From NCBI GenBank assembly GCA_024102815.1, contig JAGFJJ010000048.1:62001-126000 (forward strand): DNA of 64,000 nt. The letters run 5' to 3'. The notes below the pieces were generated by a model. That model saw only the letters and a program-made list of their open reading frames with translations, searched no databases and was not told where the DNA came from. The first letter of the stretch is position 1. The number at the start of each line of letters is the position of its first letter. The position numbers and the translations under genes were made by a program. Shown here in pieces: positions 2,460 through 11,671 of this stretch. Source of the DNA: Phycisphaerae bacterium. Its GTDB lineage: Bacteria; Planctomycetota; Phycisphaerae; UBA1845.

Positions 2460-5400
2460 CTACCGGCCCGTGGTTCGGCGGGCGTCGGCCAGAAGGGCGT
2501 CAATTTCCGCGGCGCGGCTGTCGGCCTCCTCCTTGACGTGACCCGCATTGGGATCTTCCGCTTCGGTTTTTGGGGCGGTCATTTCGTCCATGCCGATCGG
2601 CCCGAGGGGAACATTGCCCCGCGAGACAGACACGCTGGCGAGGGTCTCCTCGGACTGCGGGAGGTCATCTTCGGCGACAACCTGACCGGTGGCAGGCTGC
2701 TCCTTCCGCTGCACGGCGCTCGAGGCATACCGATCTCCGAATGCGCTGGCGTTGGCCACGGCGGATCGTGTCGTCGTGCGAGCGAGTGCTTCGAGCGTAT
2801 CGGCCGGGTGCGTCTGGCGAAGAGACGGACTGTCGGCGATGGCACGCTCGAGCCTCGTCTGCACGTGCCGGGCCTCCTCGACCCACTCCCGGAGAGTCGC
2901 CGCAGCCTGGTTGGTTTGTGCCCGCAGTTCCTCCAGCCGTTGCGCGGCTTCTCGGCTCCGCGTGTCATAGGACTGGCACTCTTTCCGCGCATCGAGCGTT
3001 GCCCTGGACAGGCCGGTGAAGACCTTCTTCACGGCCGAACAGACATGCTCCAGCTGGTCGGCCTGGGTATGCGCCTCGGCGACGACTTCCTCGGGGCGTG
3101 CGAGCAGGGAGCCCACACGCTGCTCGAGGGTCGACTCGCGGTGGGCGAGATCGGCCAACTGTTCCGCGATGTTTCGCGATTGGGTGAGGAATTCATCGAG
3201 CAGGCGGCCCGTCGAACCCGCGGCGGTCTGTGCGGAGTCGAGTTGGTCGGTCAGGTGCGCGATCAGGGCGTTGGCATCGCGGCGTACGCGTTCGTAGGTA
3301 TCGAGCAGTCCCTGTACGGATCCGCCGGCGTCGGCGAGGTCGGCCGAGCGACGCGTTGCGTCGTGGATGGCGGATTCCAGTGCTTCGCGCGTCTCCGTGC
3401 CTTCCTGAATCGTGCCGCGAACCGTTCCGTCGAGGTCCCTGGCCGAGCGGAGCAATCCGGTCAATGTGTCGAGCCGGGCGGTCAAGTCTTCCGCCTCGCG
3501 CAGATTGCGCTGGAGAACCTGGGTCAGATCGCGCGACTGGGCCACGCGAGCGCCCAGCGTTTCGGCCAGCTCCCTTGCGGGCTCAACGTCGCGGCGGATT
3601 TCCTCGACGGCTAGAGCGGCGGTGGACTGTCCTTCCCGCAAAGCCTCGGCCTGTTCGGCGGCTCGCTTGCAGACACCACGGCATTCCTCGGTGAGCTCTT
3701 CGAGGCGTTCTGCGTATCCGCAGGCCCGAAGGACGGACTGCTCCACGCGCGATTCGCATGCACGTGAAGTTTCCTCGAGTTTCTCGCGTAGCGCGTGCCC
3801 GGTAACAGTCGACTCGCCGAGTCGTCGGACGATTTCCGTCGCGGCGGCGTTGTGGGAATCGAGTCGGCCGAGGCGATCGTCGGCCACGCTGGCTCCGGCC
3901 TGTATTGCCTGGTTCAGCTTCGCCGACCGTTCGATCAGTCCACGAAGACTCTCGTCCGCCGCCTTCGATTGATCGCAGGAAGAGGCAAGGCGGGCGATGA
4001 GCCGATGGGCGTCACGAAGCTGCTCGCCGAGGGTCGCGACCTGTTCGCTTGTCGCACCCAGGTCGACCAGCGTCTGGTGCGCCGAAGCCTGCAGTGCCTC
4101 AAGCTGGGATGCCGTTCCGCTGACGCGCATGAGGTTCTGATGGGCGTCATCCACAGCTCCATGAAGCGCCTGACGGGCCGCGGCCGCGCGTTCGGAGAGA
4201 TCCTCCACACTGTGCGCCGAGCGTCCGATGCGCTGCTCAAGGTCGCCAACGGAGACTTCGCATTCCGCCAGACCGGTCTGCATCTGCCCGGAAACCGTTT
4301 CGATGCGATAGCAATAGGCGTCGAGCTCCGCCAGTTCCCGCTTGGCACCGTCAACCCGACGAGACAGAGCATCCGCGAGATCATCGTTCATGCGTCGTGC
4401 ATTCGCGACGTTCTCCTCGATCATTACAGCGATGGATGCCACATTCGCCCGGGCCAGCGACTCGATCCGTTCGCAGTCGCCGCGCAGCGAAGACTCCAAC
4501 ATGGACCGACGCTCGTGGGCTTCGTCAAGAATACGACTGACGCTTTGCTGGAGTCCCGCATGGGCGCGCTCGACGTCCCCATCCAGATCCTGCAGCCATG
4601 TTGCGGCATTGGTCCGAATCGTCGAAAGGTGCGCCTCCGCCGCCTCGGTCTCGCCGCTCAATTGCGCAATCAGTGTCCCTGCCTGCTCGTGCAGCTTCTG
4701 AACCGCCGTCCGCTGCGCAGCCACCGATTGCACCCATTCGGATTGCACGCGGCTTGCCGCGGAGCTCATCTGCTGCTCGGCCATCGCGACCGTCTCGTCG
4801 ATGCGTGCCAGGACGCCTTGCGCTGCGGCCGCGTGATCATCCCGGAGCCCGCGCATGTGCTCATCACACTCGGCGATTCGCCGCTCGGCGCACTCCTGGA
4901 GCGAGCCCTGGAGCTTCGCAAGTTTCTCTTGGGCGCGGACGACAAGCATTGCGATGGCTGATTCCGTACGGTTGATCGCCGCATGGGATTCGCCGGCGGC
5001 GCCGCTGAGTCGCAAGTGAATCTCGTCCGCCCTCGAGCGCATTTCTTCTATTTGCGTACTGACGCGAGCGGCGAGCTCGGCGGCGGCGGATTCCGAGCGG
5101 CCGAGCATCGACTGCGACTCGGTGCAAGCGTTGCGAATCTGCTCGCGAATCTCCGCGGCGCATTCGCCCTGGGCTCGTTTGATGTCCGCCCGCGTTTCCA
5201 TCAAAACCTTTCCGGATTCCGTTCGAAGCGAAGCAAGAGCGTTTTGAAGCGATTCGCTCGCTGCGTTCTCCAATTGTCGGGCGAGCGACGCCGTGGTTGC
5301 GTCGAGCTGCTGCCTGAAGAACTCGCGTGATTCGTCCATCTGGGTCGCGAGACTTGTCTGGGTGGTCATGGCCTTGGCCAGAATGCTCTCGGCGCGCTGC

Positions 5401-6905
5401 AAGGACTCGGTCATCGTGGTGCAGCAGGTGTCTGCACGGCGGGCCGACTCGGTCGCGCCGGAGGAAGCGCGCTGTGCATCGGCTGTCGCCTTGGACAATT
5501 CCTGGCGAGCAACGTCCAATTCCCCGCGGACTCGACCAGCCAATTCGATCGTTGAACTTGCCATCGCCTGGAACTGTTCGTTGCCGCGCTCCAACGCCGC
5601 TCGCGTGGACTCGCCGGCGTCGACGCTCGCAAGCAATCCCGATACCTGCTCCTGAACCTGCTCAATACGGTCGGCGAGCTGCTCCGCAATCGACGAGAGG
5701 CGCTGCTCGACCTGCAATGCCCGCTCACATGCCTCACCGAGCCGCTCCGTACGCTCGTTGGACTCTTCGTCGTTGCCGCTCAACAAGCGTTCCTCAAGTG
5801 CCGCAGCACGGCGCTCGGCGGCCTCGAGTATGGTGGCAAGCCGTTGCTCGAAATTGCAGGCCGCAGTCTCGACCGAATCGATTGCGCTGGAATGCTCGGA
5901 CATGTGATCATCCTGTCGTGGTATCAGCGGTGTCGTAGTCTGTGGCTCCGACGCCAATTCGGTTGGGCGGGCGTCTTCCCGGGCTCCGGGTCGACCGCGA
6001 TCCATGCCGATTTCGGGTGTCGGAATTACTTCCTGGCAAGTTCGCGCCCTGCGCGGTTTGGAACCCGGTGGCACCGAAACCCTCCGTGACGCCCGATCGG
6101 GCCAGTCCGCAAGTTCGCGTATGACATCGCCGTCAATGCACTTTTTGCCTTCGCGCGCGGCTCTTGCCAGCGCGATCCGTACCAGATCGTTGATTCTCCC
6201 GGGCCTGGCGGCGCCGAGTTCGTGAATAAGCTTGCATGCCTGCGTATCGATGAGATCGTCGCGGCTTGAACCGGACGCCCGGAGTCGATGATCCAGGTAG
6301 GCTGTTGTCTCGTCCATCGAAAAGGGCACCAGCTCAAGGCGCACTGCGATGTGCGAGCACAAGTCGACCGCCTGCTTCGACTGCAGCGTCTCTTCAATTC
6401 CCGGGCGGGCAAGAAGAACGATGTCCAGTAATCGTCGATCTTGTTCGGCGAGCTGCACAAGCATGGCCATCCGCGGCAGGTCGGCCGCGCAAAGCTGCTC
6501 GGCTCCGTCAATCAGCAGAATGGCACGTCTGTCGTCGCCCAGTAACTCCGCCAGATCGCGGCGGAGCTTGGCGATCGCGCGGGCGTCGTCGAAGTGGCGC
6601 GGGGGTTCGAGCTTGAGAACGTGAAACACGTCACGGAGCAGGTTCGTCCTGCCGGCCGATTCCCGATGCAACCAGGCCGTTCTTCGTCCATGGAGTGTCG
6701 CCAGTCGATCACGAAGGCAGCACCCCCAAAGCGATTTCCCCATTCCTGGTGGAGCGGTGAGCAGAATTCCGCCGCGCCCTGAAACCAGCGTTTCCGTCGC
6801 GTCCGCCAAGGTCTGCGACCAAGCCGGAGTCTCGAAGAGGAAATCGGTGTCGGGCACGTCGTCGAATGGGGGACGCGAAAGGCCAAAGCGCGTTTCGGGC
6901 ATCAT
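2460..6905 (-). CDS. ExeA-type AAA+ ATPase fused to giant coiled coil
   Basis: A 1,481-residue protein. Residues 1-270 look like an ExeA/MshM/GspA-type AAA+ ATPase: it opens with FGLSRPPF, has Walker A APPGMGKS near residue 50, Walker B AILLIDGAEQ near 125, and an arginine-rich sensor region. A proline-rich linker follows (about 280-335). From about 340 to 1400 the sequence is almost continuous heptad-type coiled coil rich in Ala, Glu, Arg, Gln and Ser, with no membrane segment. Known ExeA proteins instead end in a peptidoglycan-binding domain and serve type II secretion or pilus assembly. The start here is the ATG of the MMPETRFGL segment, because it matches the family N-terminus; an ATG 54 bases further upstream is also open. 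An internal ATG at 5903 with AGGA 7 bases before it could make the coiled coil alone. It lies 143 bases after the RDD gene on the same strand. Its role is unknown. Confidence 0.75.
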   Translation of the reverse strand: MMPETRFGLSRPPFDDVPDTDFLFETPAWSQTLADATETLVSGRGGILLTAPPGMGKSLWGCCLRDRLATLHGRRTAWLHRESAGRTNLLRDVFHVLKLEPPRHFDDARAIAKLRRDLAELLGDDRRAILLIDGAEQLCAADLPRMAMLVQLAEQDRRLLDIVLLARPGIEETLQSKQAVDLCSHIAVRLELVPFSMDETTAYLDHRLRASGSSRDDLIDTQACKLIHELGAARPGRINDLVRIALARAAREGKKCIDGDVIRELADWPDRASRRVSVPPGSKPRRARTCQEVIPTPEIGMDRGRPGAREDARPTELASEPQTTTPLIPRQDDHMSEHSSAIDSVETAACNFEQRLATILEAAERRAAALEERLLSGNDEESNERTERLGEACERALQVEQRLSSIAEQLADRIEQVQEQVSGLLASVDAGESTRAALERGNEQFQAMASSTIELAGRVRGELDVARQELSKATADAQRASSGATESARRADTCCTTMTESLQRAESILAKAMTTQTSLATQMDESREFFRQQLDATTASLARQLENAASESLQNALASLRTESGKVLMETRADIKRAQGECAAEIREQIRNACTESQSMLGRSESAAAELAARVSTQIEEMRSRADEIHLRLSGAAGESHAAINRTESAIAMLVVRAQEKLAKLQGSLQECAERRIAECDEHMRGLRDDHAAAAQGVLARIDETVAMAEQQMSSAASRVQSEWVQSVAAQRTAVQKLHEQAGTLIAQLSGETEAAEAHLSTIRTNAATWLQDLDGDVERAHAGLQQSVSRILDEAHERRSMLESSLRGDCERIESLARANVASIAVMIEENVANARRMNDDLADALSRRVDGAKRELAELDAYCYRIETVSGQMQTGLAECEVSVGDLEQRIGRSAHSVEDLSERAAAARQALHGAVDDAHQNLMRVSGTASQLEALQASAHQTLVDLGATSEQVATLGEQLRDAHRLIARLASSCDQSKAADESLRGLIERSAKLNQAIQAGASVADDRLGRLDSHNAAATEIVRRLGESTVTGHALREKLEETSRACESRVEQSVLRACGYAERLEELTEECRGVCKRAAEQAEALREGQSTAALAVEEIRRDVEPARELAETLGARVAQSRDLTQVLQRNLREAEDLTARLDTLTGLLRSARDLDGTVRGTIQEGTETREALESAIHDATRRSADLADAGGSVQGLLDTYERVRRDANALIAHLTDQLDSAQTAAGSTGRLLDEFLTQSRNIAEQLADLAHRESTLEQRVGSLLARPEEVVAEAHTQADQLEHVCSAVKKVFTGLSRATLDARKECQSYDTRSREAAQRLEELRAQTNQAAATLREWVEEARHVQTRLERAIADSPSLRQTHPADTLEALARTTTRSAVANASAFGDRYASSAVQRKEQPATGQVVAEDDLPQSEETLASVSVSRGNVPLGPIGMDEMTAPKTEAEDPNAGHVKEEADSRAAEIDALLADARRTTGR

Positions 6906-7048
6906 GTCACCATCGCGAATTTGCAGCGTTGCCGCGGCGCATGGGCATTCCCCGACCATTATCAGCGGAACGGCTTCGCCGCCGGGTACGTCCGGTATCT
7001 CATCGGATGGCGATTCGAAAGGCTGAAGTTATCGGTCAGTGAACGATC

Positions 7049-8863
7049 TCAGGACTTGTCGTCGGATTCGGAGGAACCGGGTCGACGTTCGCTTATATCT
7101 ATAGGGGCAGGCGCCACGACAACGGTGCCGGCCAGCACGTCGCCCAGACGCTGCCGATTCGGCGTCAGTCCGATAAGTACAAACAGCAGAACCATTTCAA
7201 ACTCGACGATTCGCGTGAGGTTGCGAACGAGCACGGCGGAGAACGTGCGGGGCGTGCCGTCGGCCCTCAACACCTTCAGCCCCCAGACACGCTTGCCCGG
7301 CGTCGCTGACATGGCCAATTCGAACACCGTACCGTAAACAGCGTAGATCGCACCGCACAGGGGCAGAAGGAGCTCCATCGCTCCGGACTGCTGGGCGGTT
7401 GCAGCCGCGCTGCGCGACGCCAGATCGGCCACGGTATATCCGGCGCGGCTCCAAAGTGCGAAAAAGACAAGGCTCCAGAGGGGTGAAAGCAGCAGCATGT
7501 CCAGTACGGCGGCCGCCAGGCGGGTGGAGAGTGGCGCAAGCTGGACTTCCTTGGGCAAGGGGAGAGGCATGAAAACGCGACTTCGACGCCACAGAAAAAG
7601 CGATGCAACCAGCGCCCCGATCACGGCGTACTCTACGAGCATGCGCGTCTGCGGGCTGACGGCGGCCGGACTCGTATCAAGCGCCAGCACCGGCTGGGGC
7701 CCCGTCTCAAGCTTGCCGGTATCCAGGGACCACTGCCCGATGACAACATCTGCGCCGTCCTCCCCGCTTTCCGTGGCAACGAATGCCCTGCCGTCGAAAA
7801 CCGTGATCGCTACGGGTGAGTGGAATGTGCTTGGCGAGCCGTGCTCATCAGCGAGTTTGGGACCGACCTTCCACTGCCCCTCCTGCAAGTGCAAGGACGA
7901 AATGACGAGGTGATCCTGTTCTCGCTGGGCGTCCACGAGTACCGGCTGACCGTCCACCCATCCGCCCCCCCAATCGGCGGGTACATCGGCAAGCGGAAGT
8001 GCCTGCGGAGGCGACCAGGGCTCATCGGGGCTGGCGCTGCGCCTCGCGACAAAATCCCGTTTCTCACGATCCCGGCGATACACAAGATACAGCTTGGCGT
8101 CGCGTGCAAGCATTGAAGCCACTTCCGCGGAGACGGTCAGATCATCCGGCGCCGGACGATCATACACCCACCATTGCCCCGTATAGCGAACCACGACGTA
8201 ATCCGTGCCGGGAAGAGGCGCGCCGGACTCGGACGCCGGCACATCGCTCCCGGGCGAGGCGTCGTTCGCATTGGCATTCGCGTTTTCGGCCGCTGGCGTA
8301 CCGGTGTCCAGGGCAGGGTCAACCAGCCAGCGGGTCTGCGAAAGGTCGCGCGCGACGCGAGTCGTGATCAGGGCATAAAGTGTCGACGCGGGCACGTCGG
8401 CGGCGAGCGCCGTGGGAACGGTCGACCGGGGCAGGTTGATTTCGACATGCTGCACCTTCGTCGAGGTCGCATCCCACGTGGGTACGGGCCGCGAGTACCG
8501 GCGGTGGGTGCCGTCGCGATAGAACACATAAAGACTGTCGCCCATCGCCGCCGACTGCATCACGGCGCCCTGCAATCCGGTCCGAAACAGCGGGAGGAAT
8601 CGGTCTTCCGCAGGGGGCGCGACGCGCCGGCTGGCGAAATGGAGAAGCAGCTTGCCCTCGGAGTCCGATTGGCGGTGGTAAACCCAGATGAGCTGATCGG
8701 ATGCGGCGAGCCCGATTTTGGGTGGATCGGCCGCCCTGGCGGGCATCGCCGCCGCCAAGACGACCGGGAGAATCCCGGCGGAAACCGCGACTATGCCGCG
8801 ACCCGGTCCTCGTGACTTGTACCGCTTCGGATCCCGCAATTGGTATGTACCAGCCGGAGGCAT
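7049..8863 (-). CDS. Secreted beta-rich domain fused to RDD membrane domain
   Basis: A 604-residue protein. Residues 23-45 form a signal-peptide-like hydrophobic segment ending in ARAA. About 360 residues of extracytoplasmic sequence follow, rich in short beta-type strands and aromatic residues (for example QLIWVYHR, LYVFYRD, YVVVRYTGQWWVY), which suggests a beta-propeller-like fold; this is inference. A membrane segment near 405-421 leads into a C-terminal RDD domain (about 435-590) with further membrane helices, RVWGLKVLRADG and LTRIVEFEMVLLF. RDD proteins are integral membrane proteins of mostly unknown role, some linked to ion or amine transport. The start ATG is 3 bases downstream of the preceding gene's stop, so translation is probably coupled. 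Function unknown. Confidence 0.8.
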   Translation of the reverse strand: MPPAGTYQLRDPKRYKSRGPGRGIVAVSAGILPVVLAAAMPARAADPPKIGLAASDQLIWVYHRQSDSEGKLLLHFASRRVAPPAEDRFLPLFRTGLQGAVMQSAAMGDSLYVFYRDGTHRRYSRPVPTWDATSTKVQHVEINLPRSTVPTALAADVPASTLYALITTRVARDLSQTRWLVDPALDTGTPAAENANANANDASPGSDVPASESGAPLPGTDYVVVRYTGQWWVYDRPAPDDLTVSAEVASMLARDAKLYLVYRRDREKRDFVARRSASPDEPWSPPQALPLADVPADWGGGWVDGQPVLVDAQREQDHLVISSLHLQEGQWKVGPKLADEHGSPSTFHSPVAITVFDGRAFVATESGEDGADVVIGQWSLDTGKLETGPQPVLALDTSPAAVSPQTRMLVEYAVIGALVASLFLWRRSRVFMPLPLPKEVQLAPLSTRLAAAVLDMLLLSPLWSLVFFALWSRAGYTVADLASRSAAATAQQSGAMELLLPLCGAIYAVYGTVFELAMSATPGKRVWGLKVLRADGTPRTFSAVLVRNLTRIVEFEMVLLFVLIGLTPNRQRLGDVLAGTVVVAPAPIDISERRPGSSESDDKS

Positions 8864-8866
8864 CGA

Positions 8867-9766
8867 CTAGGTTCCCCTTCTCTGACCGCCGGCATCCGTC
8901 CTGGATTCCGGTCCTGGTTGATCCGGAGATATGGGAGTTGTCCGCGGAAGACAAGCCGGAGGCGCAGCGAACTGCACGCTGCCGCAATCGATGTCGCCAT
9001 ATAGCGACCAGAGTCGGACCGTGAAGCGCAACTCGTTCGGCTCGTTCGCCTGGTCGAACCAGCGGACCTCCAACTTCGTGGGCAGCCAGGGACCATCCTC
9101 CATTCTCTTGTAGTCATCGAGTCGGGACTCGATCTGCACACGGCCGAGCGCGTCCCGAAAAACGACCCGGCGCACGCGACCGGGCGCGGCCAAGTCCAGC
9201 CAATATTCCTTCTGCAAGGCGATTCGGCCCCATTCGTCACGTTCAATGAAGAGAATCTGCTGATACGGTTCCACCACGCGCTGCACACAGCCCAGCAAGG
9301 GATCGTCCGGCCAGAGTTCAATGGGCGAAAGGCCGAGGGCGTCGATGATTCGATCCGGCTGGATGGGCGGCGATTCCTCAGGATCGACAGGTTCGCCGTG
9401 GCGACCGCAGAAGTACTGATCTCCCTTCTTGAGGTAGACCCAATAGGCTTCCTCGTTGGAGCCCAGGAGCAGTTGGCGCTCGCCCAGTACCTTGAAGTCC
9501 ATCCGAAAGCACTGCGGCGGACGAAAGAACATCACGCCGTCAGCGTGAAAACTGCGTATTGTCCCGTCTTCCGTGAATCGGCCGTCCACTGGACCGACGG
9601 CCCGCAATGTTCCGCTAACAATCGAGGCATTGGCGTTCACCAACCGGGCCGCGTCCGCCAGCGGAATCGGCTCCGGATAGAGAATTCGCTTCGGGCCGTT
9701 GCATCCTGCGAGAAACAGCAGGATGGCCGAGATGCTCGCGAGGAGAGACGCGGTGGATTTCCTCAC
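8867..9766 (-). CDS. Predicted lipoprotein, LolA/LppX-like fold
   Basis: A 299-residue predicted lipoprotein. The N-terminus is a clear type II signal peptide with lipobox LAGC and lipid-bearing Cys22. The mature part runs as alternating strands, with phrases such as GTLRAVGPVDGRF, FFRPPQCFRMDF and LGSNEEAYWVYLKKGDQYFCG, typical of the half-barrel LolA/LolB/LppX group that binds lipid or lipoprotein. I infer the fold; no diagnostic motif proves it. The gene starts with GTG and overlaps the upstream gene's TGA by GTGA, and the RDD protein starts 3 bases after its stop. Tight coupling suggests the three products act together at the envelope. Confidence 0.75.
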   Translation of the reverse strand: MRKSTASLLASISAILLFLAGCNGPKRILYPEPIPLADAARLVNANASIVSGTLRAVGPVDGRFTEDGTIRSFHADGVMFFRPPQCFRMDFKVLGERQLLLGSNEEAYWVYLKKGDQYFCGRHGEPVDPEESPPIQPDRIIDALGLSPIELWPDDPLLGCVQRVVEPYQQILFIERDEWGRIALQKEYWLDLAAPGRVRRVVFRDALGRVQIESRLDDYKRMEDGPWLPTKLEVRWFDQANEPNELRFTVRLWSLYGDIDCGSVQFAAPPACLPRTTPISPDQPGPESRTDAGGQRRGT

Positions 9767-10374
9767 GATCGTGTCTCGCGATCCGCGGCGTCAGCCGGCT
9801 CAGTCGATTCGGCCGAATGTTCCACGCCAGCACTGTCGACCGGCGACGCTCCATCCCCCTCCCACGCCGGGTCCGGCGATTCCCCTTGGAGCAAGGCCGT
9901 CAGCTCCCGACCGACGGCGTCGATCTGATTGTCGGCCAGGCGCGGGTTGATAACCCGGTGTCGCGATTGATCGCGCCCCAGCGTCATCTCCCACACTTCG
10001 AGGTCGTCCTCCATGGCCGAGCCTTCGTAACGCAATTTTCGCTTCCGCATGAGCATCAGCGCCAGGACGAATCGAAACTGCACGCGTGTGGGTTCATCCT
10101 CGCCTTCAAGGCGAAGGAAGAAATCAACCAGAGATTCATCGCCTACGGCGTTCTGCTGCCTGCGCTTATCCTTCCTGGCGGGGACGCGGCTGCGAAAATA
10201 ACAGAAGGTGCCCGCGGGGGCACCCGGCCATGCCTCAAGCGAGTAGTCCTCGCGGCGAAATGTGTCCCCCTCCTCGATCAGCACGCTGTAGAACTCCTCT
10301 CCCTCGGCGAGCACCCGTCCCGAGGCCGCACAAACTCCAGTCGGTCGGACAACGGGCCAATCTTGGGCGGACAT
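9763..10374 (-). CDS. Conserved hypothetical protein
   Basis: A 203-residue soluble protein that I cannot assign to a named family. It begins MSAQDWPVVRPTG and contains ASGRVLAEGEEFYSVL, which resembles a short treble-clef or zinc-ribbon-like start but has only isolated Cys residues (CAASGR and FCYFRSR). The middle is strongly basic and hydrophobic (FVLALMLMRKRKLRYEG) and the end is acidic. The start was chosen at 10374 because GGAG lies 8 bases upstream; an upstream in-frame ATG at 10428 lacks such a site. It is the first gene of the coupled set with the LolA-like lipoprotein (GTGA overlap) and the RDD protein. It is transcribed away from the L,D-transpeptidase gene. Confidence 0.7.
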   Translation of the reverse strand: MSAQDWPVVRPTGVCAASGRVLAEGEEFYSVLIEEGDTFRREDYSLEAWPGAPAGTFCYFRSRVPARKDKRRQQNAVGDESLVDFFLRLEGEDEPTRVQFRFVLALMLMRKRKLRYEGSAMEDDLEVWEMTLGRDQSRHRVINPRLADNQIDAVGRELTALLQGESPDPAWEGDGASPVDSAGVEHSAESTEPADAADRETRS

Positions 10375-10651
10375 GGGCGGGACTCCGGCAACCTCTGGCG
10401 AAACGCGTCTCGCAAGACAGCAGTTCATGCATTGGAGAGTGCATTTCCGCGATCGTCAAGCCGCGACACCGTCCGAACCGCGCCGCCCTTGGTCAGGCCG
10501 ATTGGGTCGTGCGAATTCGGCAAAGCCCTTTCGCTTCGCCTCCCGCGCGCGTATCCTGCTTCGACGTGGATGCGGCTGATGCCGACCCCTGGCCGGTGCC
10601 GATGAATCCGAAGAATGAATCCCATCGTCGCTTGCGACGGAGAAGAAATAC

Positions 10652-11671
10652 GTGGCTCGACGCCGTCGCCGAAAACGCTCTCGACCACTCGCTGTCATCT
10701 CTGTGCTGGCGGTACTCGTGCTGGGCGCATGGTGGCTCTACCCATCAGAGGGCGACGCTCTGCTGCGCCCGCCGACGCCACTGATCGGAGAAACGCGGGA
10801 ACCGGTCGGAACACCCGCGAACAGCGAAGCACCCCCCGCCCCGCGTGAGAGCGCAAGCAGCACCGTGGCGCCAGAATCAGCGTCTCCCATCCCGGCGTCC
10901 GAGGCCTCCCCTCCCGCCCCCACGGAAGAGAAGCTCGCCGCGATCGTGCGAAGCGGAGAGCAAGCTGCAGCCCGAGGCGACTTTATCGCAGCCAGGCAGA
11001 CGCTCTCTGAGGCGATGCGCTCGGGCCTGTCGGGCAGCCAGGCCGATGCTGTTCGCAACCAGCTTGTGCACATCGCCGACGAGACGATCTTTTCCGGGCG
11101 CATCTTTGAGAATGACCCCCTTGTCGAGCGGTACGTCATCAAGCCGGGCGACCACATGGCCAAGATCGCTCGAACGACCATGGTCTCTCCTGAGCTGCTC
11201 GCCCGGATCAACAGCATCGCCGACGTGAATCGGATTCGCGCCGGCCGGGCATTGAAACTGGTCAAGGGTCCGTTCCGCGCCGTGGTGGATAAAGAAACCT
11301 ACACGATGGATGTGTACCTTCAGGACGTGCTCGTGCGCAGCTACCGGGTGGGGCTCGGGGCTGACGACAGCACGCCGCGCGGGCAGTGGCGGGTGGGAAC
11401 TCGCCTGGAGAACCCGACGTACTATCATCCCCGTGGCGGCGAGATCATCACGGCCGACGACCCCCGCAATCCACTGGGAGAACGTTGGATCGGGCTCATC
11501 GGCATATCCGGCGAAGCCCTGGGACAGGAGCGTTACGGAATCCACGGCACCATCGAGCCGGATTCCATCGGCAAGAGCAATTCCCTCGGGTGCATCCGCA
11601 TGCACAACGATGACGTCGAATGGGTCTATGACATGCTGGTTGAGCAGCACTCGACCGTGGAAGTGAAATAG
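10652..11671 (+). CDS. LysM-domain L,D-transpeptidase (YkuD)
   Basis: A 339-residue envelope enzyme. Residues 13-30 form a membrane anchor after a very basic MARRRRRKRSR start. A Pro/Ala/Ser-rich spacer follows, then a LysM peptidoglycan-binding domain (about 158-205, RYVIKPGDHMAKIA). The C-terminal YkuD domain (about 213-335) carries the catalytic signature HGT...SNSLGCIRM, with His near 297 and Cys near 313. L,D-transpeptidases form 3-3 peptidoglycan cross-links or attach proteins to the wall. That implies peptidoglycan in this organism. Translation starts at GTG, with GGAGAAG about 7 bases upstream. It is divergent from the gene ending at 10374. Confidence 0.93.
   Translation: MARRRRRKRSRPLAVISVLAVLVLGAWWLYPSEGDALLRPPTPLIGETREPVGTPANSEAPPAPRESASSTVAPESASPIPASEASPPAPTEEKLAAIVRSGEQAAARGDFIAARQTLSEAMRSGLSGSQADAVRNQLVHIADETIFSGRIFENDPLVERYVIKPGDHMAKIARTTMVSPELLARINSIADVNRIRAGRALKLVKGPFRAVVDKETYTMDVYLQDVLVRSYRVGLGADDSTPRGQWRVGTRLENPTYYHPRGGEIITADDPRNPLGERWIGLIGISGEALGQERYGIHGTIEPDSIGKSNSLGCIRMHNDDVEWVYDMLVEQHSTVEVK

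What the first reader, a model, noticed from the sequence alone, without database searches (positions are those of the whole stretch)
2460..6905. ExeA-type ATPase fused to about 1,000 residues of coiled coil
Known ExeA/MshM/GspA-type ATPases are short and usually end in a peptidoglycan-binding domain. Here the ATPase is followed by one of the longest coiled coils one would expect in a bacterium, without any membrane helix. That suggests a filament, tether or cytoskeleton-like part driven or placed by an AAA+ ATPase, possibly linked to envelope assembly.
Basis: partly seen in the sequence, partly recalled or inferred. Interest (0 to 1): 0.62.

Follow-up and report, generated by a model that had tools for sequence, protein, structure and literature searches.

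The report
Disarmed AAA+ head on giant coiled coil
A planctomycete gene makes a very long rod-shaped protein with an ATP-binding head whose ATP-splitting residue is replaced in every relative we could read; the rod gene is present in essentially every genome of one bacterial family, so it is probably a structural scaffold and not an ATP-driven motor.

Summary
Window 2460-6905 (minus) is one uninterrupted 1,481-aa gene: an ExeA/TIGR03015-like AAA+ domain (res. 4-267), a linker, a ~1,020-residue almost proline-free helix with a coiled-coil hydrophobic repeat, a disordered tail and a conserved C-terminal helix. There is no membrane helix and no peptidoglycan-binding domain. The fusion is real: it recurs in 22 other genomes of the family. 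A C-terminal rod block (AVRKVFaGLS...WVeEA...THP) occurs in 49/51 family genomes (30/30 good ones) and, at a strict cut-off, in none of 183 other genomes of the class.

The interpretation needs correction. In all 22 readable heads of this clade the Walker B glutamate is gone (17 Gln, 2 Gly, 2 Asp, 1 Asn) while the Walker A lysine is kept; six relatives lack the head entirely. So the rod, not ATP turnover, is the conserved part. The gene is a fast-evolving paralogue of an ATPase encoded beside the Wza/tyrosine-kinase polysaccharide-export cluster; sister families carry long rods on that copy. Most likely it is a cytoplasmic scaffold or tether with an ATP-binding, weakly or non-hydrolysing head, its C-terminal end docking an envelope partner. 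Mechanism and partner are inferred.

The parts
2460..6905 (-). whole gene, 1,481 aa (frame open to 6959)
6105..6896 (-). AAA+ head, residues 4-267 (ExeA/TIGR03015-like; Orc/TnsC/MuB fold)
6732..6755 (-). Walker A APPGMGKS (residues 51-58): Lys kept, first Gly replaced by Ala
6492..6518 (-). Walker B LLIDGAEQL (residues 130-138): catalytic Glu position is Gly; Gln in 17 of 22 clade heads
5898..6104 (-). low-confidence Arg/Pro-rich linker, residues 268-336
   Evidence: pLDDT about 50
2832..5897 (-). coiled-coil rod, residues 337-1358
5595..5759 (-). conserved start-of-rod block (C..A...E.RL...AE.LAD...Q.R...LL...V..G), residues 383-437
   Evidence: also visible in headless relatives
2811..3122 (-). 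family-defining C-terminal rod block, residues 1262-1365 (AVKKVFTGLS...LREWVEEA)
2517..2762 (-). disordered tail, residues 1382-1463
   Evidence: pLDDT about 30
2463..2516 (-). conserved C-terminal helix RAAEIDALLADARR (family EIxxLIEEAK), residues 1464-1481
7049..8863 (-). upstream neighbour: RDD membrane protein
8867..9766 (-). upstream neighbour: lipoprotein-like protein (signal and lipobox-like Cys by eye), no Pfam or NCBIfam family
9763..10428 (-). upstream neighbour: 221-aa protein, no known family; trio conserved order-wide

Best explanation
A cytoplasmic coiled-coil scaffold or tether. SHOWN: an AAA+ head of the ExeA/TIGR03015 kind that keeps the ATP-binding lysine but has lost the Walker B glutamate clade-wide, a ~1,020-residue helical rod with heptad-like spacing, and a conserved C-terminal rod block and terminal helix. 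SHOWN: the rod with its C-block is kept even where the head is lost. INFERRED: the rod dimerises (about 150 nm if straight, at 0.1485 nm per residue); ATP binding without efficient hydrolysis lets heads assemble or hold a partner as a long-lived clamp; the C-block and terminal helix dock on an envelope-side protein, so the rod spaces or positions envelope machinery. It probably arose by duplication within the ATPase family whose other copy sits at the Wza/Wzc-type polysaccharide-export locus.
For: Walker B Glu 0/22 in the clade against 21/28 in the other heads of that alignment (Fisher p 2.6e-8; relatedness not corrected), Walker A Lys 22/22. The head evolves fast: median pairwise identity 38.6% against 66% for the export-locus copies, long branches, one clade (97/95). 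Six headless relatives keep rod and C-block; parsimony 4 changes, at least 2 forced. C-block in 49/51 family genomes and 30/30 good ones, nearly always one place per genome. Terminal peptide in 18/29 tails against 0.025 expected from shuffles, 0/41 in non-clade tails. The other copy lies beside Wza and tyrosine kinase, and long-rod versions do so in sister families. Upstream neighbours of the window gene are a membrane protein and a lipoprotein-like protein.
Against: No partner, localisation or oligomeric state is known. None of the 30 clade loci read has the polysaccharide-export genes nearby, so the envelope link is indirect. The upstream trio adjoins the gene in only about ten family genomes and lies elsewhere in others. 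Loss of the Walker B Glu does not prove absence of hydrolysis; most members have a Glu two residues further on (D-Q-A-E), which might compensate. Rod model confidence is modest (pTM 0.27), and the oligomer number of the coil was not tested.
Confidence: 0.45

Rival explanations
1. Intermediate-filament-like cytoskeletal protein: the rod self-assembles into filaments and the head is a vestigial or regulatory cap.
For: Rod and C-block are near-universal in the family and persist without the head; rod sequence drifts (20% median identity) while composition and heptad spacing stay. Bacterial rod-domain proteins that form filaments, with drifting rod architecture, are established (PMC2680258).
Against: Conserved end blocks and a terminal peptide suggest specific docking; one relative has only 270 residues between head and C-block end. 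The published survey chose proteins without other known domains.
Confidence: 0.25
2. DNA-linked tether: an Orc/TnsC/MuB-like head binds nucleoid DNA in the ATP state and the rod links it to the envelope or bridges DNA, loosely SMC-like.
For: The head fold is closest to Orc/Cdc6, TnsC and MuB, which act on DNA; SMC-like profile hits in the rod.
Against: SMC hits are coiled-coil similarity only: no ABC ATPase halves. ExeA-like ATPases share the broad fold without known DNA binding. Headless relatives exist.
Confidence: 0.12
3. An active AAA+ motor that assembles or drives an envelope machine.
For: Walker A lysine is kept; the ExeA ATPase domain is needed for secretin assembly in Aeromonas (PMC4098917).
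Against: Walker B Glu absent in 22/22 heads; head dispensable in six relatives; rapid head drift.
Confidence: 0.1
4. Artefact: mis-joined genes or a frame read through non-coding DNA.
For: Antisense frames of 358 and 388 aa overlap it, typical of G+C-rich DNA.
Against: Same fusion in 22 other genomes, uniform codon-position G+C, conserved ends.
Confidence: 0.01

Closest known systems
TIGR03015, XrtA/PEP-CTERM system-associated ATPase (NCBIfam)
   Same: N-terminal 260 residues align over nearly the full model; sister copies in related genomes score about 250-306 bits
   Different: 93 bits against a cut-off of 324.5; DEAQ replaced; 1,200 extra residues; exosortase genes of this genome lie on other contigs
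ExeA/GspA of type II secretion
   Same: cytoplasmic AAA-type ATPase of the same broad kind
   Different: ExeA is about 60 kDa with one transmembrane helix and a periplasmic peptidoglycan-binding domain (PMC4098917); both are absent here
Paralogue at the Wza/tyrosine-kinase polysaccharide-export locus of the same order (own copy: G000 C45, L053)
   Same: same head family; long rods of the same kind in sister families, with a weak echo of the C-block (20-35 bits)
   Different: mostly DEAQ; short C-terminal part in this family; different locus
Bacterial IF-like / coiled-coil-rich proteins (crescentin, FilP)
   Same: long coiled-coil rod with drifting sequence
   Different: AAA+ head; filament formation untested
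SMC/Rad50
   Same: nucleotide-binding domain plus long coiled coil
   Different: Orc-clade AAA+ head at one end instead of a split ABC ATPase with hinge

Membership tests
ExeA/GspA | AAA-type ATPase domain of the FGLxxxPF kind | tested here: met
ExeA/GspA | one transmembrane helix | tested here: not met
   max 19-residue Kyte-Doolittle 1.13
ExeA/GspA | peptidoglycan-binding domain | tested here: not met
   no such Pfam or NCBIfam match
TIGR03015 equivalog | score above the curated cut-off (324.5 bits) | tested here: not met
   93 bits
TIGR03015 equivalog | Walker B DEAQ | tested here: not met
   DGAE
TIGR03015 equivalog | linkage to an exosortase locus | tested here: not met
   exosortases on contigs C6 and C49; window gene on C48
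Hydrolysis-deficient AAA+ proteins | Walker A lysine kept, Walker B glutamate lost | tested here: met
   Lys 22/22, Glu 0/22 in the clade
Hydrolysis-deficient AAA+ proteins | measured ATP binding without turnover | not testable with these tools
   biochemistry needed
IF-like coiled-coil proteins | more than 80 residues of coiled coil, continuous or segmented (PMC2680258) | tested here: met
IF-like coiled-coil proteins | no other known functional domain (survey rule, PMC2680258) | tested here: not met
   AAA+ head in the window gene; met only by the headless relatives
IF-like coiled-coil proteins | filament assembly | not testable with these tools
   experiment needed
SMC/Rad50 | N- and C-terminal halves of an ABC ATPase with a hinge between coils | tested here: not met
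   head is AAA+ of the Orc/TnsC clade; SMC profile hits lie in the rod only

The most novel reading that the evidence does not exclude
A lineage-defining bacterial scaffold in which a duplicated AAA+ ATPase gave up hydrolysis to become a nucleotide-locked cap on a ~150-nm coiled-coil rod: a filament or tether system, near-universal in one planctomycete family, with repeated loss of the cap.
Probability: 0.25. Interest if true: 0.75.

Novelty: new variant of a known kind. Interest (0 to 1): 0.48.

Why it matters
Planctomycete cell organisation is unusual and poorly explained. A near-universal, family-specific giant coiled coil is a concrete candidate for a structural element. The clade is also a natural experiment: ATP-binding kept, hydrolysis residue lost, then the head lost, with a conventional paralogue in the same genome as control. 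It also shows that polysaccharide-export ATPases in this order carry long rods, which we found described in none of the papers searched.

Tried and rejected
PDB sequence search with the whole protein: nothing. Profile of the C-block against PDB: only generic coiled coils (chemoreceptor, tropomyosin, SNAREs), taken as heptad similarity. Midasin, dynein and ABC-transporter hits of the head profile: mostly without a passing stretch, P-loop only, ignored. The full 27-row C-block alignment failed as a genome-contig query and was reduced to 12 rows. Long frames outside the order in genome G278 were checked: the ATPase sits near the far end of unrelated proteins, not a coil fusion. A 2,180-aa frame (L055) is an upstream open extension of low-complexity, G+C-rich type, not evidence of a longer protein. 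An ATPase beside headless rods was sought; the only candidate (L034:998-2455, 60 bits) looks like an SRP GTPase by its C-terminus and was rejected. Literature: no paper on TIGR03015 or on ExeA-type ATPases with coiled coils in planctomycetes in the library.

Full report
OBSERVATION. The minus-strand frame 2460-6959 is open throughout; the best start is ATG at 6905, giving 1,481 aa. The N-terminus matches TIGR03015 (93 bits, below the 324.5 cut-off) and Pfam AAA_22. The AlphaFold2 head model (pLDDT 85.5) has an AAA+ fold closest to Orc/Cdc6, TnsC and MuB (Z 17-20). From residue 337 to 1358 the chain is almost proline-free helix (modest confidence). Its hydrophobic pattern peaks at 3.54 residues with 4-5 times the shuffled power, and a COILS-type score exceeds every shuffle. 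There is no membrane helix. A disordered tail follows, then a terminal helix.

THE FUSION IS REAL AND LINEAGE-BOUND. Among 60 related genomes, 56 match. In the same family (f1) 22 other genomes carry head and rod in one frame. A conserved block near the end of the rod (A1) is found in 49 of 51 family genomes and 30 of 30 good ones, and at E<=1e-6 in none of 183 genomes outside the family in the class. Weak similarity (20-35 bits) occurs in rods of sister families. Outside the order, TIGR03015 ATPases sit mostly in frames of 270-460 aa, some 500-900; the one frame above 1,000 seen outside it (G278) has a different architecture. Named relatives are Phycisphaerae/Planctomycetota MAGs.

WHERE IT COMES FROM. 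A second ATPase copy lies divergently beside Wza (SLBB) and tyrosine-kinase genes in all but one of the f1 loci fetched for it, including the own genome (L053), and long-rod versions sit there in sister families; none of the 30 clade loci does. The head tree makes the window type one clade (SH-aLRT 99; 97/95 without the longest branches), with long branches: 2.1 changes per site for the window head against 0.25 for its own export-locus paralogue. Root position is not inferred, so 'derived by duplication' is an inference from distribution.

THE HEAD IS LOSING CATALYSIS. All 22 readable clade heads keep the Walker A lysine and none has the Walker B glutamate: 17 Gln, 2 Gly, 2 Asp, 1 Asn; 21 of 28 other heads in that alignment have it. 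That a Walker B Glu-to-Gln change blocks hydrolysis while leaving ATP binding is established for AAA+ proteins (general knowledge). Export-locus ATPases of family f4 also have D-N and lack the rod, so the loss is not tied to the rod. Six relatives lack the head, by 4 parsimony changes on the C-block tree, at least 2 forced; no detached head gene adjoins them. Median head identity is 38.6% in the clade and 66% in the paralogue; rods are at 20%, C-blocks at 35%.

THE ENDS ARE CONSERVED. Besides the C-block, a start-of-rod block and a terminal peptide EIxxLIEEAK recur; the peptide is in 18 of 29 tails by a strict pattern against 0.025 by shuffling and 0 of 41 non-clade tails. The pattern was written after looking at the tails, so this figure is descriptive.

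NEIGHBOURHOOD. Upstream on the same strand, closely packed, lie an RDD membrane protein, a lipoprotein-like protein and a 221-aa protein. This trio is conserved across the order at its own locus and adjoins the rod gene in about ten family genomes; in f4 genome G048 a rodless ATPase with D-G-A-E adjoins the same trio (L152). Co-function is possible, not shown.

MECHANISM. Because the rod and its ends are kept while the head decays, the protein most likely works as a scaffold or tether. ATP binding without efficient turnover would make a durable clamp or oligomer switch. Envelope docking is inferred from the paralogue's locus and the neighbours. Confidence 0.45; IF-like filament 0.25; DNA tether 0.12; active motor 0.10.

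KNOWN VERSUS NEW. ExeA has a transmembrane helix and a peptidoglycan-binding domain (PMC4098917); neither is here. IF-like rod proteins are known in bacteria (PMC2680258), but that survey excluded proteins with known domains. From memory only, other giant bacterial coiled coils exist (Scy, HMW2), so length alone is not unique. No paper found describes this family. Verdict: new variant of a known kind.

Noticed in passing
7049-10428 (minus): RDD membrane protein, lipoprotein-like protein and 221-aa protein form an order-wide conserved gene trio of unknown function; the latter two match no Pfam or NCBIfam family.
   Followed up: partly
L039-L051 (order-level relatives): The ATPase beside Wza/Wzc/tyrosine-kinase polysaccharide-export genes itself carries a long coiled-coil rod in sister families, in some with a different C-terminal motif (LGE[IL]V..N.KLN.WL).
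   Followed up: partly
L038, L056, L057, L043: A further long-rod ATPase group (1,008-1,282 aa), not beside export genes, separate in the head tree.
   Followed up: no
L153-L155 (family f4): Export-locus ATPases with D-N in Walker B and no rod: Walker B loss has probably happened more than once.
   Followed up: partly
G327:C1: Twelve equal-scoring copies of a 276-aa ExeA-like ATPase in one genome, suggesting a mobile element.
   Followed up: no
10652-11671 (plus): LysM plus L,D-transpeptidase gene divergent from the trio, conserved in several relatives.
   Followed up: no
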